Assembly: GCA_025356055.1 (NCBI GenBank)
Contig: JANXUU010000028.1
Location: 1-41,226 of the forward strand
Direction: 5' to 3'
Length of the DNA: 41,226 bases
From: Sphingomonas sp.
GTDB lineage: Bacteria; Pseudomonadota; Alphaproteobacteria; Sphingomonadales; Sphingomonadaceae
In this document: positions 1 to 14,369 of the stretch, piece after piece
How positions within the stretch are numbered: the first letter of the stretch is position 1
How the letters are laid out: every line of letters starts with the position of its first letter
Notes under the pieces: model-generated
Seen by the model: the letters and a program-made list of their open reading frames with translations, nothing else
What the model was told of the DNA's origin: nothing
The model's database searches: none
Position numbers and translations under genes: made by a program

Positions 1-2279
1 GCGAGTGGACGCGGGCGAACATCGCGGCGATGCGCACGCAACTGAAAGGGCTCGGCTTTGCCCTCGACTGGAGCCGCGAACTGGCGACCTGCGAGCCCGA
101 TTATTACGGGCATGAGCAGGCGCTATTCCTCGACCTGCTCGAGGCTGGCCTGGTCTATCGCAAGGAAAGCGAGGTCAATTGGGACCCGGTCGACGCGACC
201 GTGCTGGCCAATGAACAGGTCATCGACGGGCGCGGCTGGCGGTCGGGCGCACTGGTCGAGCGGCGCAAGCTGAGCCAGTGGTTCCTGAAGATCACCGATT
301 TCGCCGAGGAATTGCTCGACGGGCTGGGAACGCTCGACCAATGGCCCGACAAGGTCCGGCTGATGCAGGAGAACTGGATCGGCAAGAGCCAGGGGCTGAA
401 ATTCGCGTTCGAGCTGGCCGAACCCGAAGCCGGGATCAGCTCGGTCGAAGTGTTCACGACGCGGCCCGACACGATCTTCGGGGCTAGCTTTGTAGCGATT
501 TCGGCGGGGCATCCGCTGGCGCAGGCGGTGGCCGAGCGGGACGGGGGGGCGAGCGCTTTCATCCTCGAGTGCAAGACCGGCGGGACGACCGCGGCCGAGA
601 TTGAAACGGCGGAAAAGCGCGGTTTCGACACGGGCCTGGAGGTGGTTCATCCGCTCGACCCGACCCGGCGGCTACCCGTCTGGATCGCCAATTTCGTGCT
701 GATGGAATATGGCACCGGCGCACTGTTCGGGGTGCCCGCACACGACGCCCGCGACTTCGAATTTGCAAACAAATATGAACTTGAAATCCGCCGCGTGGTG
801 ATCCCGCAGGGCGGCGATCCCGACGCTTCGGTCGACGGGCCCGAGACGGGGTACGGGGTCGCAGTCCATTCCGGTTTCCTCGACGGACTATCGAGCGAGG
901 AGGCCAAGGACGAGGTCATCCGCCGCGCCGAGGCTGGCGGATGGGGCGAAGGGACGACCCAATATCGGCTGCGCGACTGGGGCGTGTCGCGGCAACGCTA
1001 TTGGGGGACGCCGATCCCGGTGATCCATTGTGCGGCCTGCGGACCGGTCGGGGTGCCACGCGACCAATTGCCGATCGTGTTGCCCGAGGATGTGACCTTC
1101 GATGTGCCGGGCAACCCGCTCGACCGCCACCCGACCTGGCGTCATACCGTCTGTCCTAAATGCGGCGGCAAGGCTCGGCGGGAGACCGACACGCTCGACA
1201 CGTTCGTCAATTCGTCGTGGTATTTCATCCGCTTCGCCAGCCAGCCGGGCGATAAGCCGTTCGACCGGGCGGAGGCCGAACAATGGCTTCCGGTCGCGCA
1301 ATATATCGGCGGGGTCGAACATGCGATCCTGCATCTGCTCTACGCGCGCTTCTGGACCCGGGCGCTTCAGAAGATCGGCAAGATCGGGATTGCCGAGCCG
1401 TTCAAGGGGCTGTTCACGCAGGGGATGGTGACGCACGAGACGTACAGGTCGCTCGACGGGCGCTGGCTCGGGCCGGACGAGGTCGACGATGCGCCGGGTG
1501 CGACGCTGATCGAGCGGGCGACGGGAACCGCGGTGGTCCGCGGCCGGATCGAGAAGATGTCCAAGTCGAAGAAGAATGTCATCGATCCCGAGCCAATCGT
1601 CGACCGCTATGGCGCGGACGCGGTGCGCTGGTTCATGCTGTCGGACTCGCCCCCCGAGCGCGATCTGGAATGGTCGGAAGCAAGCATCGAGGGAGCCGCA
1701 AGATTCGTGCAGCGGGTGTGGAAGCTCGTGCGCGGAGCACGCGAAGCGAGCGGCAGCGACGCGACGCAACAAGAACAAGCGAGCGGCAGCGACGCGACGC
1801 CAACAAGAGACTTGGCGGTCGACAGGAAACTGGCTCGCGCGACGGCAGCAATCGGCGCAGCGATCGACGGGCTGGCGTTCAACAAGGCGATCGCGGCGGT
1901 CTATGAGCTGGTCGGCGCGCTTGAGAAGGCCGCGCCCTCGATCAGTCGGGACGAAGCGGTGCGGGCGCTGGTCAAGCTGGTGTCGCCAATGGCTCCGCAC
2001 CTCGCCGAAGAAAGCTGGGCAATGCTTGGCGGCGAGGGGATGGTCGCAGATGCGGCGTGGCCTGAGTTTGATCCGGCTCTGCTGGTCGACGACGAAGTGA
2101 CCATCGCGGTTCAGGTCAACGGCAAGCTTCGTGACACGGTGACGGTCGCGCGTGGGATGGACAAGGACGCGCTCGAGGCAATCGCGTTGGGGCGCGACAA
2201 GATCGTTCGCCTGCTCGGCGGGGCGACTCCGCGTAAAGTGATTGTCGTTCCCGACCGGCTGGTCAATATCGTCGCGTGA
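1..2279 (+). CDS. leuS: Leucyl-tRNA synthetase, 5' end outside window
   Basis: Charges tRNA-Leu with leucine in the cytoplasm. The reading frame is open from the first bases (codons in phase with position 3), so the gene starts upstream; roughly 95 N-terminal residues, including the HIGH motif, are missing against a usual length near 850. Visible are the CP1 editing domain (TTRPDT near 460-480 and [19 protein letters not shown] near 712-770), a zinc-type CxxC pair near 1031-1165, the KMSKS loop at about 1557-1571, the anticodon-binding domain and the C-terminal domain ending at TGA 2277-2279. An 11-residue tandem repeat ([11 protein letters not shown], then [11 protein letters not shown]) sits in the linker between the catalytic core and the anticodon-binding helices, where the family normally has a short variable segment. 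It keeps the frame, so the enzyme is probably functional. lptE follows after a repeat-filled gap. Confidence 0.97.
1746..1811. repeat. 33-bp in-frame tandem repeat inside leuS
   Basis: Two copies of a 33-bp unit, 1746-1778 and 1779-1811. The first 22 bases are identical (each begins GCGAGCGGCAGCGAC) and the tails differ slightly (ACAAGAACAA against CAACAAGAGA type endings). As 33 is a multiple of three, the copies add 22 residues without disrupting LeuRS. Read on the minus strand the unit runs TTGTTGGC, then a short variable middle, then CGCTGCCGCTCGC. The same two blocks occur in the lptE repeat 500 bp downstream. Confidence 0.9.
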
Positions 2280-2304
2280 TGAATACAAAGCGCTCCGGCC
2301 ATTT

Positions 2305-2500
2305 ACTTTTGTTGGCTGCCCTGTCGCTGCCGCTCGGCAGCGGCGGGGACTTTGCTCGATGATCGGCCGGATGCCTCGCTGGTTTTTGTTGGCTGCCCTG
2401 TCGCTGCCGCTCGCCGGCGGCGAGGACTGTGCTCCATGATCGGTCGGATGCCTCGCTGGTTTTTGTTGGCCGCCCTGTCGCTGCCGCTCGCCGGCTGTGG
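2305..2500. repeat. 77-bp tandem repeat, about 2.5 copies, at the lptE start
   Basis: The string GTTGGCTGCCCTGTCGCTGC recurs at 2311 and 2388, and with one change at 2465, giving an exact 77-bp period. Each unit carries the lptE start-codon and signal-peptide coding segment: ATGATCGG at 2359 and again at 2436, followed by the same WFLLAALSLPLAG-coding DNA. Only the last copy continues into the mature protein. The upstream copies are out of frame with it (77 is not a multiple of three), so they are untranslated, or encode short decoy peptides. The unit boundaries are approximate. Confidence 0.9.
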
Positions 2501-2945
2501 CCTGCACCCCTTGTATGAGGGCGGCAGTTCCGGAATAGCAGCCACTGGGCTTCGCTCGATCGAAGTCGCGCCGATTCCTCAACGCAGTGGCTGGCTTACC
2601 CGCAACGCGCTGGTCGACCGGCTGGGCGGCGAGCATCCGGCAGGGCTTTATCGGCTCGAGGTCGAACTGGACGACACGCTGATCGGGTTCGGCATTCGCG
2701 GCGATGCGGCGGCTACCCGTGAGCGACGGACACTGCGCGCGCGCTATCGGCTGGTCGCACGAGCAAGCGGCGCGGTGCTGCTCGACGCCACCGCCGGATC
2801 GGATGCGGGGATCGACGTCGTCAGCTCCGAATATGCCACCGTCGTCGCCGAGCAAAGTGCCGCCGAGCGGCTGAGTCAGGTCGTCGCGGATCAGATTGTC
2901 GTTCGACTGGCGCGCTACATGACGGCCGCGCCGCGGCGCCCGTGA
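2436..2945 (+). CDS. lptE: LPS-assembly lipoprotein LptE
   Basis: Outer-membrane lipoprotein that plugs and assembles the LptD barrel for lipopolysaccharide export. The 169-residue product starts with a lipoprotein signal peptide ending in the lipobox LAGC (Cys21), followed by GLHPLYEGG, the typical alphaproteobacterial LptE opening. The rest is a small alpha/beta domain with two predicted long strands. The ATG at 2436 is chosen because the frame upstream of it is repeat DNA; an ATG at 2448 (MPRWFLL) is an alternative. Its 5' region is triplicated (77-bp repeat), so earlier ATGs lead to non-productive frames. holA begins 7 bp downstream, a common lptE-holA pairing. Function is inferred from the signal peptide, motif and context. 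Confidence 0.9.
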   Translation: MIGRMPRWFLLAALSLPLAGCGLHPLYEGGSSGIAATGLRSIEVAPIPQRSGWLTRNALVDRLGGEHPAGLYRLEVELDDTLIGFGIRGDAAATRERRTLRARYRLVARASGAVLLDATAGSDAGIDVVSSEYATVVAEQSAAERLSQVVADQIVVRLARYMTAAPRRP

Positions 2946-2952
2946 GGGTGCG

Positions 2953-3966
2953 ATGAAGGCCAGCAAGGCAACGCTCCTCGCGAGCCTCGACCGGCCCAGC
3001 CCCGAGGTGCGGTTCTATTTATTCTACGGACCCGACGAGTCGGGATCGCACGCGCTGGCGCATCGGCTGCTCAAAAGCCTGGGCGCGGAGCGGTTCGTCG
3101 TGACGGCGGGCGCGGTCAGGGGCGATCCCGCACTACTCGCCGACGAAGCGAGCGCGATGGGGCTGTTCGGCGACAAGCGATTACTGTGGATCGACCCCGC
3201 CGGAGACGAGATTGCCGAGGGTGTCGCAGGACTGCTCAGCGCACCAGCAGTCGAAAGCGTCGCGATTGCGATTGCCGGGTCGCTGAAGAAGAGTTCGGCA
3301 CTCCTCAAGCTGGCCGAGGCGGATCGCGGGGCTCTGGCGCATGCATCCTATCTCCCCGAGGGGCGCGACGCCGACCGGATGGTGGTCGATCTAGCGCGCG
3401 CGGAAGGATTGCGGGTGAATGGCGAACTGGCGTCGCGAATCGCGGCGTCGGCCGGCGCCAACCAGGCTATCATTGCCTCGGAAATGGCGAAATATGCGCT
3501 ATACTTGGGAGCGAGCGCGGAGGCGGTGCGCGACCTTGATCCGGAGACGATCGAGTGGCTCGGCGCGGACAGCAGCGAGGGAGATTGGCAGCGGATCGGA
3601 GATCTGGCGCTTGATGGTCGGCTGGCGGAACTTGGCGACGCGCTGCAGAGGCTTTCGCCGGGGGCGACGGAAGTCGTGCCAATCGTGCGGGCATTGCAGC
3701 GGCGGGTGCTTCAACTGGCTCCTCTGCGGGCGCGGATCGAGCAGGGCGAGCGCGTTGACAGCATTTTGACGTCAATGGGCAAGGCATTGTTCTGGAGAGA
3801 TAAAGCGATTCTTGCGCGGTTATTGTCGCAGTGGAGCGCGGCACGTTTGGCGCAGGTTGCGGAGCGGATAAGCGGACTGGAGCGACGACTGATGCTGAGC
3901 CCGGCTCCGGCTGAAGCCGCGCTTGGCGAGGAGCTGCTGGCAATTGCCCGCGCATCGCGGAGGTAG
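2953..3966 (+). CDS. holA: DNA polymerase III delta subunit
   Basis: Delta subunit of the clamp loader; it opens the beta sliding clamp at primed sites during replication. The product is 337 residues, normal for HolA. It begins with the N-terminal RecA-like fold (FYLFYGPDESGSHALAHRLL), a degenerate nucleotide-binding region as expected since delta does not hydrolyse ATP. It ends with the helical collar domain (ALQRRVLQLAPLRARIEQG, WRDKAILARLL). The start is the ATG 7 bp after the lptE stop. It is the last gene of the rightward leuS-lptE-holA group and converges on parB. Confidence 0.95.
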   Translation: MKASKATLLASLDRPSPEVRFYLFYGPDESGSHALAHRLLKSLGAERFVVTAGAVRGDPALLADEASAMGLFGDKRLLWIDPAGDEIAEGVAGLLSAPAVESVAIAIAGSLKKSSALLKLAEADRGALAHASYLPEGRDADRMVVDLARAEGLRVNGELASRIAASAGANQAIIASEMAKYALYLGASAEAVRDLDPETIEWLGADSSEGDWQRIGDLALDGRLAELGDALQRLSPGATEVVPIVRALQRRVLQLAPLRARIEQGERVDSILTSMGKALFWRDKAILARLLSQWSAARLAQVAERISGLERRLMLSPAPAEAALGEELLAIARASRR

Positions 3967-4071
3967 GTTTACAAATCGGCTGTTCTCGGGCCGCACCCCC
4001 CATCCCGCCAGCTACCCGGACGGACCAAGCCGGGAGGACGCGAGGCCAAGTTCGATACTCGCAGAAACGCC

Positions 4072-4950
4072 CTAGATCGGTTCGCCCGAGAGGCGCTGAC
4101 AGATCATGTCGAGCTGGTCGAGAGTTGAGTAGGCGAGGCTGACGGTGCCCGCGGCACCTGAATGGGCGACCTTGACCTTGAGGCCGAGCAGGTCGCCCAG
4201 TTGTCGCTCAAGCGCGACTAGGTCGGCGTCGACCGGCTTGGCAACGCGGCCCGCGGCAGGCGTGCGCGTTGACGCTGGTTTGGCGGCACGCGCACGTTCC
4301 TCGACCTGACGGACAGTAAGACCCTGTGTAACAATGTCTTTTGCTATGGCGGAGGCATCAGGCGTGCCAATGATGGCGCGCGCATGACCCATGCTGATGG
4401 CGCCGCTGACGAGCAGTTCGCGGACGTCCGCGGGAAGGTCGAGCAGGCGGAGCAAATTAGCGACGTGGCTGCGCGATTTTGCGACGAGCTTGCCGAGTTG
4501 ATCCTGGGTGTGGCCGTGGCGGGCGATCAATTTGGCGTAGCCTTCGGCTTCCTCGATCGCATTCAGATCCTCGCGCTGGATATTCTCGATCAGCGCGATT
4601 TCGGCCGACGAGGCATCGTCGATTGTCATGATCATCGCGGGGATGCTGTGAAGCTGCGCCTGCTGCGCCGCGCGCCAGCGGCGTTCACCGGCGATCAGCT
4701 GGTAGCCACCGTCGACAGGGCGGACGAGGATCGGCGAGATGACTCCGCGTTCCCGAATGGATTCGGTCAGGTCGTCGATTGCCGCCACATCGAAATGTGC
4801 GCGCGGCTGGTTAGGATTCGGATAAATCAATCCAACGCTGATCTCACGAACCGTTGCCGAACTGGGCTGCGATGGATGATCGGGGACCGGCCTAACAACT
4901 TCGCCAAGCAACGCCGACAGCCCGCGACCAAGGCCTGGACGACGGCTCAT
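4072..4950 (-). CDS. parB: Chromosome partitioning protein ParB
   Basis: CTP-dependent DNA clamp that loads at parS and spreads to mark the origin region for segregation. The 292-residue protein opens with the conserved SRRPGLGRGLSALLGE leader. It then shows the ParB/Srx nucleotide-binding fold (PNPNQPRAHFD, GERRWRAA, ENIQREDLNAIEEAEGYAKL) and the helix-turn-helix parS-binding region (HTQDQLGKLVAKSRSHVANLLRLL). A C-terminal dimerisation domain closes it. The frame is open further upstream, but the ATG at 4950 is chosen because it matches the family start and forms a 4-bp ATGA overlap with parA. Two parS sites are present nearby. Confidence 0.97.
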   Translation of the reverse strand: MSRRPGLGRGLSALLGEVVRPVPDHPSQPSSATVREISVGLIYPNPNQPRAHFDVAAIDDLTESIRERGVISPILVRPVDGGYQLIAGERRWRAAQQAQLHSIPAMIMTIDDASSAEIALIENIQREDLNAIEEAEGYAKLIARHGHTQDQLGKLVAKSRSHVANLLRLLDLPADVRELLVSGAISMGHARAIIGTPDASAIAKDIVTQGLTVRQVEERARAAKPASTRTPAAGRVAKPVDADLVALERQLGDLLGLKVKVAHSGAAGTVSLAYSTLDQLDMICQRLSGEPI

Positions 4951-5732
4951 GCGGCTTCTGCCGTCCCGCGATTGAGGCGGCCGATTACTTCTCGAGCCAG
5001 TCTCACATAAGCCTCCGATCCGGGGCATTTGAGGTCGTAGATAAGCGCTGGTAGGCCGTGACTTGGTGCCTCCGACAAACGTACGTTGCGCGGAATGACG
5101 GTCTCGAACACCGCAACGCCAAGGCAAGCGCGGACGTCCTCCGCGACGGCCTGAGAGAGGTTGTTGCGGCGGTCGTACATGGTCAATGCGACCCCTAGGA
5201 TTGCGAGCGAAGGATTAAAGGCCAGGCGAAGTCTCTCGACCGTCTGAAGAAGTTGGCTAAGGCCCTCGAGCGCAAAAAACTCACACTGGAGTGGGATAAG
5301 CAATTGTTGAGCCGCCACTAAGGCGTTGACAGTCAGCAGTCCAAGTGAAGGGGGGCAGTCGATCAAGCAAATGTCCCAACGGCCTGGCAGCACTGCGGCG
5401 AACGCGCGCGTAAGGCGATGGGTACGATTGTCCATCGTGACAAGCTCGATTTCGGCGCCCGAGAGATCAACCGTTGCCGGTAAAAGATCGAGACGGGGAA
5501 CCCTGGTAGCAATCACCGAGTCAGCGATGGTCGTTTCGCCCATCAATACATCGTAGCTCGAGTGGGCGCGCGCCGACTGCGGGACGCCCAGGCCGGTCGA
5601 GGCATTTCCCTGTGGATCCAGGTCGGCGAGAAGCACTTTCCAGCCAATGGCGGCAAGCGCGGTGGCTAGGTTGATTGCGGTCGTCGTCTTGCCAACCCCA
5701 CCCTTCTGGTTGGCGATTGCAATTTGAATCAT
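4947..5732 (-). CDS. parA: Chromosome partitioning ATPase ParA
   Basis: Deviant Walker-type ATPase that moves the ParB-parS complex to the opposite cell pole. The 261-residue product starts [20 protein letters not shown], with the deviant Walker A KGGVGKTT; LLADLDPQGNASTGLG (Walker A') and DICLIDCPPSLGLL (Walker B) follow. The start at 5732 is fixed by family alignment and by its ATGA overlap with the rsmG stop. Its own stop overlaps the parB start in the same way. It is the third gene of the coupled mnmG-rsmG-parA-parB run. Confidence 0.97.
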   Translation of the reverse strand: MIQIAIANQKGGVGKTTTAINLATALAAIGWKVLLADLDPQGNASTGLGVPQSARAHSSYDVLMGETTIADSVIATRVPRLDLLPATVDLSGAEIELVTMDNRTHRLTRAFAAVLPGRWDICLIDCPPSLGLLTVNALVAAQQLLIPLQCEFFALEGLSQLLQTVERLRLAFNPSLAILGVALTMYDRRNNLSQAVAEDVRACLGVAVFETVIPRNVRLSEAPSHGLPALIYDLKCPGSEAYVRLAREVIGRLNRGTAEAA

Positions 5733-6340
5733 CGCGTTCCCCTCGGCTGCACACCGGTAGCGAGCAGGATCGACGCGGCCTCGTCGGTCAGGCTCGGTTC
5801 CAGTCGATAGGTACCCTGCCACGCGATACGAACATCATCCAGTTCCTTCTGCGCTGTACGACCCTTGGGGAGGATCCAGACGGTCTTCGAATGGGACAAA
5901 TGGCGTGTCATCGCGAGCATTTCAGTTGCGGGTGCGACTGCCCGACCGGTGATGTTGTCAAACTTCGCGCTCACCGCCGTAGCCTTGCCGTGGATGATGG
6001 TGACGTTATCGAGAGAAAGGTGGCTCTTTACAACATGAAGGAACTTGGTGCGCAAGCGGCGCGGTTCGACGAGGGTGACGGGGTCACCAGTGACAATGGC
6101 GATGACCACGCCCGGGAGACCGGCCCCGGAGCCGATGTCGATACAGCTTCCCGGTCTCAAAAGGCGGATCAGTTGAGCCGAGTCGAGCAGATGCCGTTGC
6201 CAGAGGTTTCCGAGAGTTGATGCCGCTATCAGATTCTGTTTGCTCGATTCTTCGACTAGGATAGCGGCGTAGGCTTCCAACTTGTCGAACGTTTCACGTG
6301 AAACACTTCGTCCGCAAACCTTTATCAGTTCCTCGATCAT
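5729..6340 (-). CDS. rsmG: 16S rRNA (guanine-N7) methyltransferase RsmG
   Basis: Methylates a guanine in the 530 loop of 16S rRNA (G527 in E. coli numbering) using S-adenosylmethionine. The 203-residue protein has the SAM-binding motif [16 protein letters not shown] and the [11 protein letters not shown] segment typical of RsmG/GidB. The frame stays open upstream, but the ATG at 6340 gives the expected length and overlaps the mnmG stop by 4 bp (ATGA). The codons for VSRETF near the N terminus form a perfect parS palindrome, so this coding sequence also serves as a centromere site. Confidence 0.96.
6291..6304. promoter_or_regulatory. parS centromere site inside rsmG
   Basis: GTTTCACGTGAAAC is a perfect 14-bp palindrome matching the bacterial parS core (consensus TGTTTCACGTGAAACA). 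It lies within the rsmG coding region, where it encodes VSRET on the minus strand, about 1.3 kb from parB. ParB is expected to load here. Confidence 0.92.
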
Positions 6341-8145
6341 GCGGCTGCGCGGACAAGCGCGAAGTGGAGCGCGGACAAGGCGGCCGGGGTGATTCCGCGC
6401 ACCCGACCGGCCTGTGCCAATGTTCCCGGCTGTGCGGACGTGAAACGCTCGACCATCTCGGTGGAAAGACCTGGGACGCTCGAAAAACAAAAATTCGCTG
6501 AAATCTTGACGTTTCGATCTACATCTAAAGCCGCCCATTCACGTCTCTGGCGGTGCAGATACGGGGCGTATTCTGCGTCCGCGATGACCTCTTCCAACGC
6601 GGATCCGCTGCTGTCCAATTGCGCGATCACCGAGTCGCGATATTCGGGGCAGAGCATCCACTCACGCAGCGTCCGCCGAGTCGGCCGCCCCTCGTCGAGC
6701 AACTCCCTGTCGCGCGTGCTTCGGTCGAGGAGCTCTGAAGCGATGTCCAACGCTACTCTATGATTTTCAATCGACTCGCGCCGTTCGCTGCCGACGCATT
6801 CGGCGTCGATTGCCTGCTTGCCAAGGCGAGTGGAGGCGTTGTCAGCGCGAAGGTGCAGCCGAAACTCGGCGCGGGCCGTCATCATGCGATAGGGTTCAGT
6901 GACACCATGAACCGTCAGGTCGTCAATCATGACGCCAATGTAACTCGACGCGCGATCAAAGGTGACTGTCGCCAAGCCAAGCGCGTGTGCCGCGGCGTTA
7001 AGACCAGCGACGACCCCTTGGGCTGCCGCCTCTTCGTAGCCAGTTGTGCCATTGATCTGACCGGCGAGAAACAAGCCGGATATGTGACCGTGTGCGAGCT
7101 GCGAATCGAGCCGGCGCGGATCAAGGAAAGCATATTCGACTGCGTAGCCGGGCTGAAAAATTGCGGCACGTTCAAGGCCGGGAATAGTCCGGACGAATTG
7201 CGCCTGCACATCGGCGGGGAGCGAAGTCGAGATGCCGTTAGGATACACGAGGTGGGTACCGAGGCCCTCAGGCTCAAGGAAAATCTGATGACCGTCGCGG
7301 TCGGCGAAGCGTTTGACCTTATCCTCGATCGAGGGACAATAACGCGGCCCGCGACCCTCGATTGCCCCCGAGAACAGCGGAGATCGGTCGAGATTGGCTG
7401 TGATGATGTCGTGCGTTCGCTCTGTCGTGCGAGTGATTGCGCAATCGACTTGGGGAAGGCGGGTGAGAGGTGGGAGGGCAGACATCGACCAACTGGATCG
7501 TTCTGACGGTTGCGCTCCGAGCCTTGCCCAGTCGATAGTCCGTCCGTCGAGGCGGGGCGGAGTGCCGGTCTTGAGGCGGCCCTCCGCGAGACCGAGTTCT
7601 TCAACCTGCTCGGCAAGACCCAGCGACGAGCGCTCCCCGGCGCGACCGCCCGGTCGTTGTCCAAGTCCGCAAAAAAGCTTTGCCCCGAGAAACGTCCCGG
7701 TCGAGACCACTAGGGCCCGGCAATCGATCGAATTACCACTCGCAAGATCGACTCCGGTTAGTGTTTCGCCTGTCAGTCGGAGCCGGGCAACTTCGCCTTG
7801 AATCACAGTGACGTCGGCGTTGGCAATCATCGTGGCGATGGCAAAGCGGTAAAAGCGGCGGTCGGCCTGTATCCTCGGCCCGTGTACGGCGCTACCTTTG
7901 CTGCGGTTGAGCATCCGACGGTGAATTGTCGCCGCGTCTGCCGCGCGAGCCATCAGGCCGTCGAAGACGTCTAGCTCGCGGACGAGATGTCCCTTCCCAA
8001 CGCCGCCGATCGAAGGATTGCAGGAAAGTTGACCGAGATTCGTCGACGAGAATGTGACCATTCCGACGCGCGCGCCACGCCTTGCAGCCGCAGCCGCAGC
8101 CTCGCAGCCGGCGTGGCCCCCACCGAGAATAAGCACGTCGAACAT
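6337..8145 (-). CDS. mnmG: tRNA uridine 5-carboxymethylaminomethyl modification enzyme MnmG
   Basis: FAD-dependent partner of MnmE that installs the cmnm5 group on wobble uridine 34 of certain tRNAs. The 602-residue product begins with the dinucleotide-binding motif [13 protein letters not shown]. It contains [18 protein letters not shown] and [19 protein letters not shown], both diagnostic for GidA/MnmG, and a C-terminal helical MnmE-binding domain. The length is slightly short of the 620-630 common in the family. Its start at 8145 is an ATG; the 110-bp gap to mnmE carries a parS site. The stop overlaps rsmG by ATGA. Confidence 0.97.
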
Positions 8146-8235
8146 CGGACGGGTCTAGGACGCGGTCATGATTGCCGCAAGAACACAGGACCGCCCATCT
8201 CCTGAGTACGCAAATCCCTTTACCGCAAACAAGAG

Positions 8236-8251
8236 TGTTCCACGTGAAACA
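8236..8251. promoter_or_regulatory. parS centromere site between mnmG and mnmE
   Basis: TGTTCCACGTGAAACA matches the 16-bp parS consensus, with one asymmetric position (C for T at the fifth base), a variant I recall from alphaproteobacteria. It is intergenic, about 90 bp upstream of the mnmG start and 5 bp past the mnmE stop codon. It probably also overlaps the mnmG promoter region. Confidence 0.9.
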
Positions 8252-8255
8252 TGCT

Positions 8256-9533
8256 CTATTTGCCGAGGCAGAAGCGGGAGAAGAGGGCGTCGATAGCATC
8301 TTCAACTCCCGCGCGGCCAGTCAAGCGATCAAAGGCAACGCGCGATGAACGAAGCGATTCGGCGAGAAGGAGCAGATCGGTAGAGGCGGTTCGCAGTTGA
8401 TCTGCCGCGTCAGCTACCGCAGTCGCTTGCCGGCGATTGAGAGAAACCTCGCCCTCCGCCGGGAAAAGCGAAGCTGCCACAGTTCCCAGCATGCCGAGCA
8501 ATTGCGGGATGCCAGCCCCGGTGAGTGCAGAGACCGATAAAGCACCTTTGACAACTGGTTCGCCTAAATCGGACTTTGTAGCGATGAGGAGAAGGTGGGG
8601 ATGTGTCGGCGCATCGGCGAGATCGCCCAGCCACAACAGAATTTCCGCCCGCTTGGCCTCGGAGCGCGCGCGCGCAACACCAATCGTTTCCACAGCATCA
8701 GTGGTCTCCCGCAGGCCCGCAGTGTCGATCAGGACAACCGGGACGCCTTCGATTGCGAGCGGGACTTCGATTGAATCGCGCGTGGTTCCGGGAATATCGG
8801 TGACGATCGCTCGATCAGCTCCCGCGAGTGCGTTGACCAGACTAGATTTGCCCGCATTGGGAGGGCCGGCGATGACGACGCGAATACCGTCTTTGAGACG
8901 TTCCGTACGAGGGCGAGCGAGCCAGGTGTCAAGCTCGGTGGCGAGCGCGAGCGCGTCGCGGCAAAGCGCGCTGGTGTCGGTCGCGGTCTCGTCCTCGTCG
9001 CCGACATAATCGATCGCGGCCTCTGCGCGCGCAGACAAGTCGAGAATTCGTGACTGCCAAATGTCGACTTGGCAGGAAAGCAATCCTCCAGCGAACGCGA
9101 GCGCGGCCTGACGCTGCGATTCGGTCTCGGCCTCGAGCAGGTCTGCAAGGCCTTCGGCTTGGATCATGTCGATGCGGCCATTGACGAGCGCGCGGCGAGT
9201 AAACTCGCCGGGTTCAGCCTGCCGAAGGCCCAGTGACGTCAAGGCGTCGAGAATTGCGGCGACTACAGCGCGACCACCATGACATTGATATTCCACGATA
9301 TCCTCGCCCGTGGCGCTGCGCGGAGCATCGAAGCAGAGGATCATCACGGAGTCGAGTTCGGTTCTGGAACGAGGATCGTAAAGGGTCCGAAGCGTTGCCT
9401 CGCGGGGAGGAGGGAGCGAGCCGGCGAGCGCATTGGCTGCCGCCTTGGCCCCCGGGCCGCTGGTACGGATGACAGCGATTGCGGCCGGCGGGCGACCGCT
9501 GCTGAGCGCGGCGATAGTGTCGCTGAATCCCAT
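8256..9533 (-). CDS. mnmE: tRNA modification GTPase MnmE
   Basis: GTPase that works with MnmG in tRNA wobble-uridine modification. The 425-residue protein has the N-terminal tetrahydrofolate-binding domain (DTIAALSSGRPPAAIAVIRTSG), a helical domain and an inserted G domain with GPPNAGKSSLVNAL (G1), GTTRDSIE (K-loop), DTAGLRET (G3) and ATKSD (G4). It ends FCLGK, the variant of the C-terminal C(I/L/V)GK motif that carries the catalytic cysteine. The ATG at 9533 fits the family start. No clear Shine-Dalgarno sequence precedes it, and the stop of a decayed reading frame lies 1 nt upstream. The gene leads the block running toward parB. Confidence 0.96.
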   Translation of the reverse strand: MGFSDTIAALSSGRPPAAIAVIRTSGPGAKAAANALAGSLPPPREATLRTLYDPRSRTELDSVMILCFDAPRSATGEDIVEYQCHGGRAVVAAILDALTSLGLRQAEPGEFTRRALVNGRIDMIQAEGLADLLEAETESQRQAALAFAGGLLSCQVDIWQSRILDLSARAEAAIDYVGDEDETATDTSALCRDALALATELDTWLARPRTERLKDGIRVVIAGPPNAGKSSLVNALAGADRAIVTDIPGTTRDSIEVPLAIEGVPVVLIDTAGLRETTDAVETIGVARARSEAKRAEILLWLGDLADAPTHPHLLLIATKSDLGEPVVKGALSVSALTGAGIPQLLGMLGTVAASLFPAEGEVSLNRRQATAVADAADQLRTASTDLLLLAESLRSSRVAFDRLTGRAGVEDAIDALFSRFCLGK

Positions 9534-9534
9534 A

Positions 9535-9735
9535 TCAAGTCAGGTACGCGGCAATTTCATGCCAGCCTTCGCAGATCGTCTTGCGCGCCACGTAGAGATT
9601 CACCGCCAAGCCGACCCAAGCGACCGAACGGAAGCGCCCGATGTCGATCAGGGCAAGCTCGGCCGGCGCGGTCGGCGCGGTCGGCGCCGAGGGAGGTGAG
9701 CAGCATCGCGATGTCCATGGTAATGCCATGCCCAG
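9535..9735 (-). pseudogene. Decayed fragment resembling a TerC-family C terminus
   Basis: On the minus strand the frame ending at TGA 9535-9537 reads GRFRSVAWVGLAVNLYVARK and continues TICEGWHEIAAYL. This resembles the last membrane helix of YjbE/TerC proteins and parallels the RYHWISWIGFVVILWVAGNM ending of the intact gene at 9769-10431. No family N terminus or membrane core is present. A short ATG frame at 9719 (MDIAMLLTSLG) is in another phase and runs into GC-rich tandem repeats (GCGCCGACC units near 9668-9690). I infer the remnant of a second terC-like gene after deletion; similarity is judged by eye. Confidence 0.4.
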
Positions 9736-9763
9736 CCGCGGGCGCTCCCGCAAGCGGGCATGG
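9726..9763 (-). terminator. Hairpin just downstream of the terC-like gene
   Basis: Outer arms CCATGCCC (9726-9733) and GGGCATGG (9756-9763) enclose an inner stem GCGGG (9738-9742) / CCCGC (9747-9751) with a CGCT loop. It starts 6 bp past the stop codon of the leftward gene. There is no U-run, so it may stabilise the mRNA end or act with Rho rather than be a classical intrinsic terminator. Confidence 0.5.
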
Positions 9764-9768
9764 AGCGT

Positions 9769-10431
9769 CTAGGCGAACAAGCTGGTGATGCCCTTGATGT
9801 GCGCGTCGCCGACCCAGCCGTCGTGGATCATGTTCCCGGCGACCCACAGGATGACGACGAAGCCGATCCAGCTGATCCAGTGATAGCGCTGGACGAGGCG
9901 AGCAACGAGGTTGGCGGCGAGGCCCATCAGGAGGACCGAGAAGGTCAGGCCGATAAACAATAATGCGGGATTGTCGCGGGCGATCGACGCGACGAGGAGG
10001 ACATTGTCGAGGCTCATCGACAAATCGGCAAGGGTGACCTGGATCGCAGCCTTGAGGAAGGATTTTGAGGCGGACGGGCCTTCGACCGCAACGGTGTCGG
10101 GATCGTCGGCGATGACGACTTTCTTCGCCGGGCGGAGTTCGCGCCACATGTTGTAGGCGACCCACAACAGGAGGAGGCCGCCCGCGAAGAGGAGCCCGGT
10201 GATCTTGAGCAATTGCGTCGCGACCAGCGCGAAACCGATCAGGAAGACCAGCGCGATCGACACGCCGAGGAGAAGGACCTTGCGGCGCTGCTTGTCGGGC
10301 AAGCCCGAGGCGATGGTGCCCATGATGACGACATTGTCGCCGGCCATGGTGAGGTCGCCAAGGATGATCTGGCCGAGGCTGGCGAGCCCGGTGGGGGTCA
10401 GCGCCGAGGCGAAGTTGAGGGTCGGAATCAT
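9769..10431 (-). CDS. TerC/YjbE-family integral membrane protein
   Basis: Inner-membrane protein of the TerC family, some members of which export metal ions such as manganese; the substrate here is unknown. The 220-residue product has about seven hydrophobic segments. The paired family motifs are visible: GDLTMAGDNVVIMGTIASGLP near residue 25 and its internal repeat ADLSMSLDNVLLVASIARD near residue 139, each with acidic residues expected to lie in the membrane. The start is the ATG at 10431. It lies between rho and mnmE in the same direction, an insertion into the usual origin-region order, with a decayed relative downstream. Confidence 0.88.
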   Translation of the reverse strand: MIPTLNFASALTPTGLASLGQIILGDLTMAGDNVVIMGTIASGLPDKQRRKVLLLGVSIALVFLIGFALVATQLLKITGLLFAGGLLLLWVAYNMWRELRPAKKVVIADDPDTVAVEGPSASKSFLKAAIQVTLADLSMSLDNVLLVASIARDNPALLFIGLTFSVLLMGLAANLVARLVQRYHWISWIGFVVILWVAGNMIHDGWVGDAHIKGITSLFA

Positions 10432-10498
10432 CGCCGGGCCTTAACGCTAAACCGGCCCACCGACACGCATGAAGCGTGCCGGAAGTGCCGACTCCGCT

Positions 10499-11755
<1,257 letters not shown>

Positions 11756-11967
11756 GTCGGGCTCGTGGATGAGAGCGAAAGGAAAATTCGTCGCGCGACA
11801 GGACGCCGCTCGGAATGGGGCACGCACCGACGAAGGGGAAAAAGGCCGGCGCAGCCGTCTGGAGACGAGCGTTAGGTCTCGGCTTGCTTCAAGTCAATAT
11901 GGGGCAGAGGATCGAGAATCCAGATTCCCAGTCCTAAAACCGCTTCACGCCCTCGTCGTCGTATCGC

Positions 11968-12420
11968 CTAGAACGGCTTCACGATCACCAGCACCACGAT
12001 CAGCGCGGTGGCGATTCCGGGGACCTCGTTCATGATGCGCAGCGTGCGATTGGCGAGCGGGCGCTTGCCGTTCGCCAGCGTGCGACCATAGCTGCCGAGC
12101 CAGCCCTGATAGCCCGTCAGCAACACGACCAGCAACAGCTTGGCATCGAACCAGTGCTGGCCGAACGCGCCGATATGGAAGGCGAGAATCAGGCCGAGCA
12201 GCCAGACGATGACCATCGCCGGGGTAAGGATGATCGCACGGGTGCGGGCCTCGCGCTCGATCCAGGCGCGGTCCTCGACTGACCCCGGGCTGGTGGCATG
12301 GTGGTAAACGTAAAAGCGGGGCAGCAGGAACAGCCCGGCCATCCAGAAGATGACGAAGGTAACGTGGGCCGCCTTTACCCAAGGGTAAGCGTTGCCGAGG
12401 AAACCGATCCAATTGCTCAT
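11968..12420 (-). CDS. hemJ: Protoporphyrinogen IX oxidase HemJ
   Basis: Membrane enzyme oxidising protoporphyrinogen IX to protoporphyrin IX in haem synthesis. The 150-residue product has four hydrophobic helices. The conserved histidine lies in WVKAAHVTFVIFWMAGLFLL, followed by LPRFYVYH; both fit the HemJ (UPF0093) family, as does the length. The ATG at 12420 overlaps the hemE stop by 4 bp (ATGA), so the two haem genes are translationally coupled. rho follows downstream on the same strand. Confidence 0.92.
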   Translation of the reverse strand: MSNWIGFLGNAYPWVKAAHVTFVIFWMAGLFLLPRFYVYHHATSPGSVEDRAWIEREARTRAIILTPAMVIVWLLGLILAFHIGAFGQHWFDAKLLLVVLLTGYQGWLGSYGRTLANGKRPLANRTLRIMNEVPGIATALIVVLVIVKPF

Positions 12421-13478
12421 ACGGGAGCCTTTAGCAGCGCGACGAGCTGTTCGACATGGGTGATCGGCGTGTCCTGCTGAATTCCGTGACCAAGGTTGAA
12501 AATGTGCGGCCGGGTCGGGAAGGCAGCGCGGATGCGCCCGACCGCGGCGCGCAGCGTGTTCCCCCCGGCAATCAGCGCAAGCGGGTCAATATTGCCTTGG
12601 ACCGGGAGGCTTTTAGGGAGTTCGGCGTCGGCCCAGGCGGGGTCGACGGTCTCGTCGAGGCCGATCGCATCGATCCCGGTAAGGCGGGCGTAGGCGGCTA
12701 ATTTGCCGCCGGCGCCCTTGGGGAAACCGATGATCGGGATATGCGGATGGCGTGCCTTCAGTGCCGCAATCAGCCGCGCGGTGGGGGCAATTACCCAGCG
12801 CTCGAATTCGGACGGGGCGAGGCTGCCCGACCAGCTGTCGAACAATTGGAGCGCATCGACCCCGGCCTCGACCTGCCCCGAGAGGTAGGTCAGCGTGACC
12901 TCCTCGATCCGCTCGATAATCGCCTGGAACCGAGTGGGATCGGAATAAGCGAGGCGACGGGTATCGGACTGCTCCCGGCTGCCTTGCCCTGCGACCATGT
13001 AGGTTGCCACCGTCCATGGACTTCCGGCGAACCCCAGAAATGTCGTCTCAGGCGACAACAAAGCCTTTACCCGTCTCACGGTGGCATAAATCGGCGCGAG
13101 GCGCTCCATGGCCGGCTGGAGGCCCTCCACCGCGGCATTCATCAGCGGGGGCGACAGCCGCGGTCCTTCACCGGCGACGAATTCGAGATGCTGGCCGATT
13201 GCGTGGGGCACGATGAGGATGTCGCTGAACAGGATCGCGGCGTCGAAGGCGAAGCGGCGCAGCGGCTGAAGGGTGACTTCGGCGGCGGCTTCTGGGTCAT
13301 AGGCCAGCCCAAGGAAGCCGTCTTTCGTGGCCCTGAGCGCGCGATACTCCGGCAGATACCGCCCCGCCTGGCGCATCATCCATAGCGGCGGGGGATCGCG
13401 ACGCTCGCCCCTGAGCACGGCGAGCAGCGGCTTGTCGGCAGTTTTGGCGTGGGTATTCAGGTCGGGCGAGCTCGCCAC
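12417..13478 (-). CDS. hemE: Uroporphyrinogen decarboxylase
   Basis: Decarboxylates uroporphyrinogen III to coproporphyrinogen III in haem synthesis. The 353-residue product has the N-terminal signature PPLWMMRQAGRYLPEYR with catalytic-site arginines, FSDILIVPHAIG, GFAGSPWTVATYMVAG and the C-terminal FNLGHGIQQDTPITHVEQLV. The start is a GTG at 13478; AGGAAG lies six bases upstream in the minus-strand sequence, and no ATG lies near, which supports GTG. The gene is the leftward border of the candidate replication origin, as hemE is at the Caulobacter origin. Confidence 0.96.
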   Translation of the reverse strand: MASSPDLNTHAKTADKPLLAVLRGERRDPPPLWMMRQAGRYLPEYRALRATKDGFLGLAYDPEAAAEVTLQPLRRFAFDAAILFSDILIVPHAIGQHLEFVAGEGPRLSPPLMNAAVEGLQPAMERLAPIYATVRRVKALLSPETTFLGFAGSPWTVATYMVAGQGSREQSDTRRLAYSDPTRFQAIIERIEEVTLTYLSGQVEAGVDALQLFDSWSGSLAPSEFERWVIAPTARLIAALKARHPHIPIIGFPKGAGGKLAAYARLTGIDAIGLDETVDPAWADAELPKSLPVQGNIDPLALIAGGNTLRAAVGRIRAAFPTRPHIFNLGHGIQQDTPITHVEQLVALLKAPV

Positions 13479-13630
13479 TTATCTTCCTAACTTATAGATT
13501 CTTTAAGAATAGAATGAAGCAGTAGATGGTCGCTGGGTCGCGGGGTTTAGGGCTGCGTCCCGGCTTTGCCAACAGGCGGCTGGGAGGAACGACTCATGGA
13601 GTCGGCGCGAGTCGTCAAGGTCCGTCCCCG

Positions 13631-13639
13631 CTATCCACA
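13631..13639 (+). promoter_or_regulatory. DnaA box, one mismatch
   Basis: CTATCCACA differs from the consensus TTATCCACA only in the first base. It lies inside the hemE-maf gap, 125 bp from the perfect box and in the same orientation. Confidence 0.65.
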
Positions 13640-13755
13640 GCGTGGTGGTCAAGCGACACGGGCTGTGGACGGGGGTGGGGGCCAGGGTCGCGCGAAACGG
13701 GACGAACCGCCGGTCTTTTTCCGCCCCCGCTGCTGGGCTACGGAACATCATGAGT

Positions 13756-13764
13756 TTATCCACA
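13756..13764 (+). promoter_or_regulatory. Perfect DnaA box
   Basis: TTATCCACA, the exact DnaA-binding consensus, 24 bp upstream of the maf start. I saw no other exact copy in the window. Confidence 0.8.
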
Positions 13765-13787
13765 AGCGTGTACCGGACCTTGGCCCG

Positions 13788-14369
13788 ATGACCGTCCTCG
13801 CCTCGGGAAGCGCGATTCGGCGGGCGCTGCTCAAGGGGGTCGGGCTCGAATTTAAGGTCGAGCAGCCGGAAGTCGATGAGAATGCGCTCAAGCAGGATTT
13901 CGCCGGGACGACCGAAGCGCTGGCGACGATGCTCGCCGCAGCCAAGGCGGTCGAGGTCGGCGAACGATTCCCCGGGGAATGGGTGATCGGCAGCGATTCG
14001 ATCGCCGAATGTCGCGGTCGCCGATTCGACAAACCGCGCGATCGTGCCGAGGCGGCCGAGCATCTGCGCTTCTTTTCGGGAAAAGCGCTGTGCCTGATCA
14101 GCGCGGTGGTGCTGGCACGCGCGGGAGTCGCCGAGTGGGAGCATGTCGAGCGCGCCCGGTTGTGGGTGCGGCGCTTGTCCGAGGCCTTCATCGAGGAATA
14201 TCTCGCCGCCGAATGGCCCGGCGTTGCCGGCTGCGTCGGCGTGTTCCGCATGGAGGGACGCGGAGCGACGCTGTTCGAGGCGGTCGAGGGGAGCCATTTC
14301 ACCGTCCTCGGGCTGCCGCTGCTACCCTTGCTGGGCGCGCTTCGGGAGCGCGGTGAGATGACGTCATGA
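13788..14369 (+). CDS. maf: Maf-family nucleotide pyrophosphatase
   Basis: Maf proteins hydrolyse non-canonical or particular nucleoside triphosphates and can affect septation. The 193-residue product begins VLASGSAIRRALL, a variant of the SxSxxRxxLL motif. It continues with PEVDENAL (the conserved VDE), a divergent GSDSIAECRGRRFDKPRD, FFSGKAL and the C-terminal VEGSHFTVLGLPL. The ATG at 13788 is chosen because the 74-codon upstream extension of the frame runs through the DnaA boxes and shows no family similarity. The stop overlaps aroE by ATGA. It belongs to the divergent relatives that lie beside hemE at alphaproteobacterial origins. Confidence 0.9.
   Translation: MTVLASGSAIRRALLKGVGLEFKVEQPEVDENALKQDFAGTTEALATMLAAAKAVEVGERFPGEWVIGSDSIAECRGRRFDKPRDRAEAAEHLRFFSGKALCLISAVVLARAGVAEWEHVERARLWVRRLSEAFIEEYLAAEWPGVAGCVGVFRMEGRGATLFEAVEGSHFTVLGLPLLPLLGALRERGEMTS

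What the first reader, a model, noticed from the sequence alone, without database searches (positions are those of the whole stretch)
13479..13787. Candidate chromosomal origin between hemE and maf
The sequence shows a 309-bp gap with an AT-rich end (13479-13530), a perfect DnaA box at 13756 and a one-mismatch box at 13631. hemE points left and maf right, and most genes on each side are transcribed away from the gap. parABS with two parS sites lies within 8 kb. Placement of the origin beside hemE is established for Caulobacter. The low number of DnaA boxes may indicate a compact origin, or additional binding motifs not recognised here.
Basis: partly seen in the sequence, partly recalled or inferred. 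Interest (0 to 1): 0.72.

Follow-up and report, generated by a model that had tools for sequence, protein, structure and literature searches.

The report
Chromosome replication origin beside hemE
The short gap between two genes is very probably the place where this bacterium starts copying its chromosome; it is the expected spot for its family, slightly remodelled because one neighbouring gene has been lost.

Summary
The 309-bp hemE–maf gap is very probably the chromosomal origin of a draft sphingomonad genome. Both DnaA boxes are the window's only ≤1-mismatch ones; the perfect one is among 7 in 2.52 Mb. The AT-rich end is the window's most AT-rich 52-mer; the genome's only two parS sites (≤2 mismatches) lie 5–7 kb away. 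In 107 related loci the gap carries 260 ≤1-mismatch boxes (6.9 in shuffles), a preferred 122–125-bp spacing, an origin-specific TTGCCAACAG element and 6- to 12-fold more GANTC than other intergenic DNA. Skew fits put the origin at hemE in three of five relatives; dnaA is far away. Where hemE moved (G028) the elements stayed behind; where PPSR was lost (this clade) they stayed beside hemE: they mark an origin, not a promoter. Against: the window's hemE side has wrong-sign skew, the same-genus cumulative minimum lies 90 kb off, CtrA and IHF consensus sites are absent. hemE-linked origins are already reported for this family (PMC4741004): a new member of a known kind.

The parts
13479..13787 (.). 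putative chromosomal origin (oriC), whole intergenic region
13479..13530 (.). AT-rich stretch, candidate duplex unwinding element; overlaps the hemE upstream region
   Evidence: 71% AT, most AT-rich 52-mer of the window
13514..13529 (+). ATGAAGCAGTAGATGG: five triplets ending in G in phase, DnaA-trio-like
   Evidence: run of 5; mean run 2.5 in 79 anchored gaps vs 1.6 in shuffles; position. No adjacent DnaA box within 2 mismatches
13540..13545 (+). GCGGGG, conserved GC-rich block following the trio-like stretch
   Evidence: alignment of 108 gaps
13566..13575 (+). TTGCCAACAG, conserved element of sphingomonad origins, not a DnaA box (the following TTGAC half is not kept here)
13497..13501 (.). 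GANTC site 1 (CcrM target motif)
13591..13595 (.). GANTC site 2
13599..13603 (.). GANTC site 3
13609..13613 (.). GANTC site 4
13631..13639 (+). DnaA box 1, CTATCCACA (1 mismatch), preceded by the conserved TCCCC
13663..13669 (-). inverted half box (CTGTGGA on +), conserved in the family
13756..13764 (+). DnaA box 2, TTATCCACA (perfect), 125 bp from box 1
12417..13478 (-). hemE, left boundary gene
   Evidence: URO-D
13788..14369 (+). maf, right boundary gene in this clade (PPSR lost in between)
4072..5822 (-). parB (4072-5127) and parA (open frame 4947-5822)
6290..6305 (+). parS site 1
8236..8251 (+). parS site 2

Best explanation
The hemE-maf gap is the chromosomal replication origin (oriC). 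DnaA binds the two same-facing boxes 125 bp apart, helped by weaker half boxes between them, forms an oligomer that spreads leftward over the GC-rich block and the trio-like stretch, and melts the AT-rich end next to hemE, where the helicase is loaded; two forks leave in opposite directions. ParB on the two parS sites 5-7 kb away then moves the new origins apart. The four GANTC sites make the origin a likely target of cell-cycle methylation (CcrM). Shown: the sequence elements, their conservation, their staying at this locus when either neighbouring gene is lost or moved, the link to parS, and skew fits in relatives. Inferred: DnaA binding, melting direction, methylation control and actual firing in this organism.
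For: Own genome: only place in 2.52 Mb with the paired boxes; the genome's only two parS sites at up to 2 mismatches near by; most AT-rich 52-mer of the window. Family: 260 boxes of at most 1 mismatch in 107 gaps vs 6.9 in single-base shuffles, 103 of 107 gaps with at least one, 40 same-strand pairs at 122-125 bp. Pair pattern: 30 places in 27 of 119 genomes, 23 of the 30 within 600 bp upstream of hemE; backward control 1 of 119 genomes. TTGCCAACAGNTTGAC: 21 of 119 genomes, one place each, 20 of 21 upstream of hemE; backward control 1 of 119. GANTC 15.3 per kb in the 107 gaps vs 1.3-2.4 per kb in other intergenic regions of five genomes. Skew: best-fitting origin at hemE in G077 (40 samples), G107 and G071 (20 each), no position better; hemE scores above dnaA in all five relatives; in 46 of 60 loci the skew rises across the gap as an origin predicts. 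Natural separations: in G028 hemE lies on another contig with no box, no GANTC and no TTGCCAACAG in the 645 nt upstream, while two boxes, TTGCCAACAGCTTGAC and six GANTC stay between the UPF0093 gene and PPSR-maf; in this clade PPSR is gone and the elements stay with hemE.
Against: The window's hemE side has skew +0.073 where an origin in this orientation predicts a negative value (60 loci: mean -0.021, sd 0.037), and a strand classifier trained on 65 pieces of G077 (94% cross-validated) also reads the hemE side as right arm (+4.4, +3.5) and the maf side as mixed. In same-genus G077 the contiguous cumulative minimum is at 321.6 kb, 90 kb to the hemE side, in a shallow trough. G053 and G094 fits do not single out hemE: 15% and 27% of positions score higher. 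The pair pattern is absent from 92 of 119 genomes, including G077 (which keeps one perfect box in the gap), and 7 of its 30 places are elsewhere, so box sequences vary. Another own place, on contig C13, also has two boxes of at most 1 mismatch, 180 bp apart, between a recombinase gene and an epimerase gene. No CtrA or IHF consensus site in the gap. Only two good DnaA boxes.
Confidence: 0.91

Rival explanations
1. The gap is only a divergent promoter region for hemE and maf; the boxes are DnaA-controlled promoter elements or chance.
For: The AT-rich part abuts the hemE start and would also suit a promoter; two boxes in 41 kb is the chance number.
Against: In G028 hemE has left and the element set remains at the old locus, with no box, GANTC or TTGCCAACAG in the 645 nt upstream of the relocated hemE; in this clade PPSR has left and the set remains. 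Preferred pair spacing, one copy per genome of the TTGCCAACAGNTTGAC element, parS and skew fits are not promoter properties.
Confidence: 0.03
2. The origin is elsewhere on the hemE side, tens of kb away (as the G077 cumulative minimum at 321.6 kb would suggest), and the hemE gap is a relic.
For: G077 contiguous skew minimum and classifier switch near 300-320 kb; the window's hemE side has right-arm skew.
Against: No perfect DnaA box (nearest 231 and 713 kb) and no parS site near 321 kb in G077 (weaker boxes were not searched there); in G107 and G071 the best fit is at hemE; the elements at hemE are conserved.
Confidence: 0.05
3. The origin lies beside dnaA, as in many bacteria.
For: Common arrangement in other phyla (recalled). 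In the draft own genome dnaA is on another contig (C11), so its distance cannot be measured.
Against: In five relatives dnaA is 0.9-2.0 Mb from hemE and scores below hemE as origin, narrowly in G053 (0.206 vs 0.246), widely in the other four; [quoted passage not shown] no perfect box on own contig C11.
Confidence: 0.01

Closest known systems
hemE-linked oriC of Sphingomonadaceae (Sphingopyxis granuli TFA and DoriC entries; PMC4741004, passages seen)
   Same: Position beside hemE, conserved DnaA boxes, AT-rich unwinding element.
   Different: PPSR (COG1806) is missing between origin and maf; the TTGAC half of the TTGCCAACAG element and the TTTATTCACA box seen in several relatives are not kept; four GANTC sites, fewer than in several relatives.
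Cori of Caulobacter crescentus (hemE / COG1806; as described in PMC1914354, passages seen)
   Same: Same locus, AT-rich segment, DnaA boxes.
   Different: Caulobacter has five DnaA boxes, five CtrA sites and one IHF site; here two good DnaA boxes and no match to the recalled CtrA or IHF consensus; the right boundary gene differs.
Wolbachia / Ehrlichia / Anaplasma ori (hemE / COG1253; PMC1914354)
   Same: An origin that stayed at hemE while COG1806 is no longer its neighbour.
   Different: There by rearrangement that brought in a CBS-domain gene, with COG1806 kept elsewhere; here PPSR has no match in the genome and maf has closed up.
Basal unwinding system (DnaA box - spacer - DnaA-trios; PMC8287927, passages seen)
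   Same: Triplet-phased stretch beside a GC-rich block and an AT-rich segment.
   Different: No DnaA box within 2 mismatches next to the trio-like stretch in this genome.

Membership tests
Sphingomonad hemE-linked chromosomal oriC | intergenic region immediately upstream of hemE | tested here: met
Sphingomonad hemE-linked chromosomal oriC | conserved DnaA boxes; preferred same-strand spacing near 123 bp | tested here: met
   125 bp
Sphingomonad hemE-linked chromosomal oriC | AT-rich unwinding element | tested here: met
   (composition only; melting not testable)
Sphingomonad hemE-linked chromosomal oriC | parS sites near by | tested here: met
Sphingomonad hemE-linked chromosomal oriC | GC-skew minimum at the locus | tested here: inconclusive
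   best fit at hemE in 3 of 5 relatives, but contiguous minimum 90 kb away in G077; own genome is a 157-contig draft with wrong-sign local skew on the hemE side
Sphingomonad hemE-linked chromosomal oriC | autonomous replication / coverage peak | not testable with these tools
   needs an experiment or raw reads
Caulobacter-type Cori | hemE and COG1806 as boundary genes | tested here: not met
   hemE yes; PF03618 has no match in G000 or G077
Caulobacter-type Cori | CtrA sites (recalled consensus TTAA-N7-TTAA) | tested here: not met
   0 in own gap (one TTAA half at 13503), full site in 1 of 107 family gaps, TTAA in 53 of 107
Caulobacter-type Cori | IHF site (recalled consensus WATCARNNNNTTR) | tested here: not met
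   0 in own gap on either strand; forward form in 1 of 107 gaps
Basal unwinding system | three or more NAN trios | tested here: met
   AAG CAG TAG within 13514-13529
Basal unwinding system | DnaA box (at most 2 mismatches) within 16 bp of the trios | tested here: not met
   the only boxes with at most 2 mismatches in the gap are at 13631 and 13756

The most novel reading that the evidence does not exclude
Sphingomonad origins have exchanged the direct CtrA gate of Caulobacter for a methylation gate: a dense GANTC array (about 15 per kb, against 1.3-2.4 per kb in other intergenic regions) read in its hemimethylated state, together with an unknown factor that binds the origin-specific TTGCCAACAG(N)TTGAC element, decides when DnaA may open the origin. 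[quoted passage not shown]
Probability: 0.12. Interest if true: 0.6.

Novelty: new member of a known kind. Interest (0 to 1): 0.3.

Why it matters
It places the origin of a draft sphingomonad genome within a few hundred bases and gives a signature (box pair, TTGCCAACAG element, GANTC density) for finding origins in draft genomes of the family even where a neighbouring gene has been lost or moved; the exact patterns reach only 27 and 21 of 119 genomes, so looser models would be needed. If functional, the GANTC density and the non-DnaA element would make a CcrM-linked control of initiation testable in a group in which, as PMC8116508 reports (passage), ctrA mutation does not harm growth or viability of Sphingomonas melonis.

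Tried and rejected
Sharp skew test inside the window: rejected as a locator, because skew follows gene direction and skew near the origin is weak in the relatives. dnaA-linked origin: disfavoured. Promoter-only reading: disfavoured through G028. A full basal unwinding system in this gap: not met. CtrA and IHF sites: none. A second own place with two boxes (contig C13) lies between a recombinase gene and an epimerase gene; I judged it less likely, without further test. Multiple alignment of 108 gaps gave 903 columns with many gaps, so I counted motifs and built no covariance model. A query that I took for PPSR from locus L222 was in fact an aroE-like frame; PPSR in G028 was then identified by Pfam. 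My first check for TTGCCAACAG near the relocated hemE in G028 read one strand only; one search read both. A stretch of G077 at about 106-117 kb that looked very AT-rich is a masked run of N (7,500 bases) and is not reported as a feature; L119 (5,000) and L140 (2,500) also hold N, which count as zero in the skews. The paper search for the string TTGCCAACA with 'origin' showed 10 of 254 papers, none on bacterial origins; the rest were not seen.

Full report
What is there. The window is a whole contig (C16, 41,226 bp) of a 157-contig, 2.52-Mb draft genome. The gap 13479-13787 separates hemE (-) from maf (+). It holds TTATCCACA at 13756 and CTATCCACA at 13631, the only two boxes with at most 1 mismatch in the window; that number per se is the chance number, but both sit in the same 309 bp, and the genome has only 7 perfect boxes in all, so 0.0009 would be expected in the gap. 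Of the 6 other places one (C13) has a second box of at most 1 mismatch within 300 bp; it lies between a recombinase gene and an epimerase gene. The AT-rich 13479-13530 is the most AT-rich 52-mer of the window.

Neighbourhood. Left of the gap, on the minus strand: UPF0093, rho, a TerC-family gene, mnmE/trmE, gidA, gidB, parA, parB; right, on the plus strand up to 19.4 kb: maf, aroE, coaE, an exonuclease (dnaQ-like), an S30AE gene, a PTS EIIA gene, a cell-wall hydrolase, an MmcB-like gene. Outside that the directions are mixed. parS: two sites genome-wide at up to 2 mismatches, both in the window (6290, 8236); in all 8 genomes searched the sites lie within about 14 kb of hemE, with one further 2-mismatch site elsewhere in G021.

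Family comparison. HemE searches gave 29 relatives with flanks (117 of 119 genomes have hemE at E up to 1e-60) and 80 named loci (the best 80 of 583). From these 109 loci 107 gaps were used; one duplicate (L143) and one short locus (L173) were dropped. In 460 nt each, which includes some coding sequence, they hold 86 perfect and 260 boxes of at most 1 mismatch against 0.25 and 6.9 in single-base shuffles; 103 of 107 have at least one and 82 at least two; same-strand pairs pile up at 122-125 bp (40 pairs). TTGCCAACA is in 44 of 107 and GCCAACA in 61 of 107 gaps. GANTC occurs 651 times against 178 in shuffles; against other intergenic regions of five genomes (crude ORF calls) the gaps have 15.3 per kb versus 1.3-2.4 per kb, and the gap of each of the five is above its 95th percentile. 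The window's gap has 4 GANTC sites, 12.9 per kb against 2.8 per kb in the window; 2.5% of 309-nt windows of the window have as many, so for this one gap alone the excess is modest.

Uniqueness. The pattern TATCCACA-N100-128-TTNTCCACA has 30 places in 27 of 119 genomes; 23 places, in 23 genomes, lie within 600 bp upstream of hemE, 7 elsewhere; the backward control hit 1 of 119 genomes. In the own genome it occurs once, in the gap. TTGCCAACAGNTTGAC occurs in 21 of 119 genomes, once each, 20 of them upstream of hemE; its backward control hit 1 of 119. The window and G077 keep only TTGCCAACAG, without TTGAC.

Two natural separations. The one exception for TTGCCAACAGNTTGAC, and one of the seven for the pair, is a single place in G028 on contig C2: two boxes, six GANTC and the AT-rich and TTGCCAACAGCTTGAC elements between the UPF0093 gene and PPSR-maf-aroE-coaE-dnaQ, while hemE lies on contig C4 with no box of at most 1 mismatch, no GANTC and no TTGCCAACAG in the 645 nt upstream (PPSR by Pfam). 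In the window's clade the reverse happened: PPSR (PF03618) has no match in G000 or G077 but lies beside hemE in the 8 other genomes searched; maf starts 316-346 bp from HemE residue 15 in 5 of 108 relatives measured, 1,090-1,458 bp in 97, and was not found in 6. These 5 and the window form one clade in a HemE tree (support 91/76, 88% of 200 bootstrap trees), so one loss suffices. The elements follow neither gene; they belong to the locus.

Skew. A two-breakpoint fit to 20-kb samples puts the origin at hemE in G077 (40 samples, 2 contigs), G107 and G071 (20 each, one contig), with no position scoring higher; in G071 the skew goes from -0.037 to +0.065 between the two stretches that meet at hemE, though the next sample on the right is -0.051. 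G053 and G094 are inconclusive, with 15% and 27% of positions scoring higher than hemE. hemE scores above dnaA in all five, narrowly in G053. dnaA lies 0.9-2.0 Mb from hemE in these five. Against the reading: contiguous data of 520 kb in G077 show a shallow trough with its minimum at 321.6 kb, 90 kb from hemE; no perfect DnaA box or parS site is near that point. In the 60 of 80 named loci that were long enough, hemE-side skew averages -0.021 and the other side +0.011, and in 46 of 60 it rises across the gap; the window does not: +0.073 on the hemE side, +0.025 on the maf side. A 4-mer strand classifier agrees with this wrong sign. The hemE side is a run of minus-strand genes with C-rich third positions, which may drive it, but I could not show that.

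Mechanism. Shown: elements, their order and conservation. Inferred: DnaA nucleates at the boxes and spreads to the AT-rich end. The 13514-13529 stretch has five in-phase triplets ending in G; in the 79 of 108 gaps (78 family, 1 own) that have a GCGGG/CGGGG anchor the mean longest run is 2.5 against 1.6 in shuffles; shared descent may inflate this. The basal unwinding system's DnaA box next to the trios is missing here, and 25 of 78 anchored gaps have a reverse box within 2 mismatches there (1.8% in shuffles). CtrA and IHF consensus sites (recalled) are absent from the own gap.

Known or new. PMC4741004 (passages) says that the origin was placed close to hemE as predicted for most Sphingomonadaceae in DoriC and that conserved DnaA boxes and an unwinding element are seen in Sphingopyxis. 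PMC4059872 (passages) reports a predicted origin with three DnaA boxes close to hemE in Novosphingobium sp. PP1Y, there also close to a dnaA gene. PMC1914354 (passages) describes hemE-COG1806 as the likely ancestral boundary and a changed boundary in Wolbachia and relatives. [quoted passage not shown] So the finding is a new member of a known kind. In the ten library searches I saw no listing that names a GANTC density or a TTGCCAACAG element in sphingomonad origins; I opened five papers and only passages of them, CcrM papers such as PMC3973325 were seen as listings only, and subscription papers are not held.

Noticed in passing
L263 (G028:C2:203000-215000), origin elements at about 208,300-208,600; L264 (hemE on C4): A relative in which hemE has moved to another contig while the origin element set stayed between the UPF0093 gene and PPSR.
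   Followed up: yes
G000 and G077 whole genomes: PPSR (PF03618), the usual origin neighbour, has no match in either genome of this genus; one clade of six rows lacks it at the locus.
   Followed up: yes
window 1-13478: The hemE side has an unusually strong positive GC skew (about +0.07), and the parAB-gidA-trmE block has a lower G+C (0.59-0.62 around 5-9 kb) and third-position G+C (0.63-0.67) than most neighbouring genes.
   Followed up: partly
L002 (G000:C13:547-3555), boxes around C13:1867 and C13:2047: A second own place with two DnaA boxes of at most 1 mismatch, 180 bp apart, in the gap between a recombinase gene and an epimerase gene that face each other.
   Followed up: partly
G107 whole genome: 43 perfect DnaA boxes, against 1-16 in the other 25 genomes of the same search (16 in G021 of the same genus).
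   Followed up: no
G024:C7:1380999 and G109:C1:119860: The box pair upstream of hemE lies in the opposite orientation to that of the other genomes with the pair at hemE.
   Followed up: no
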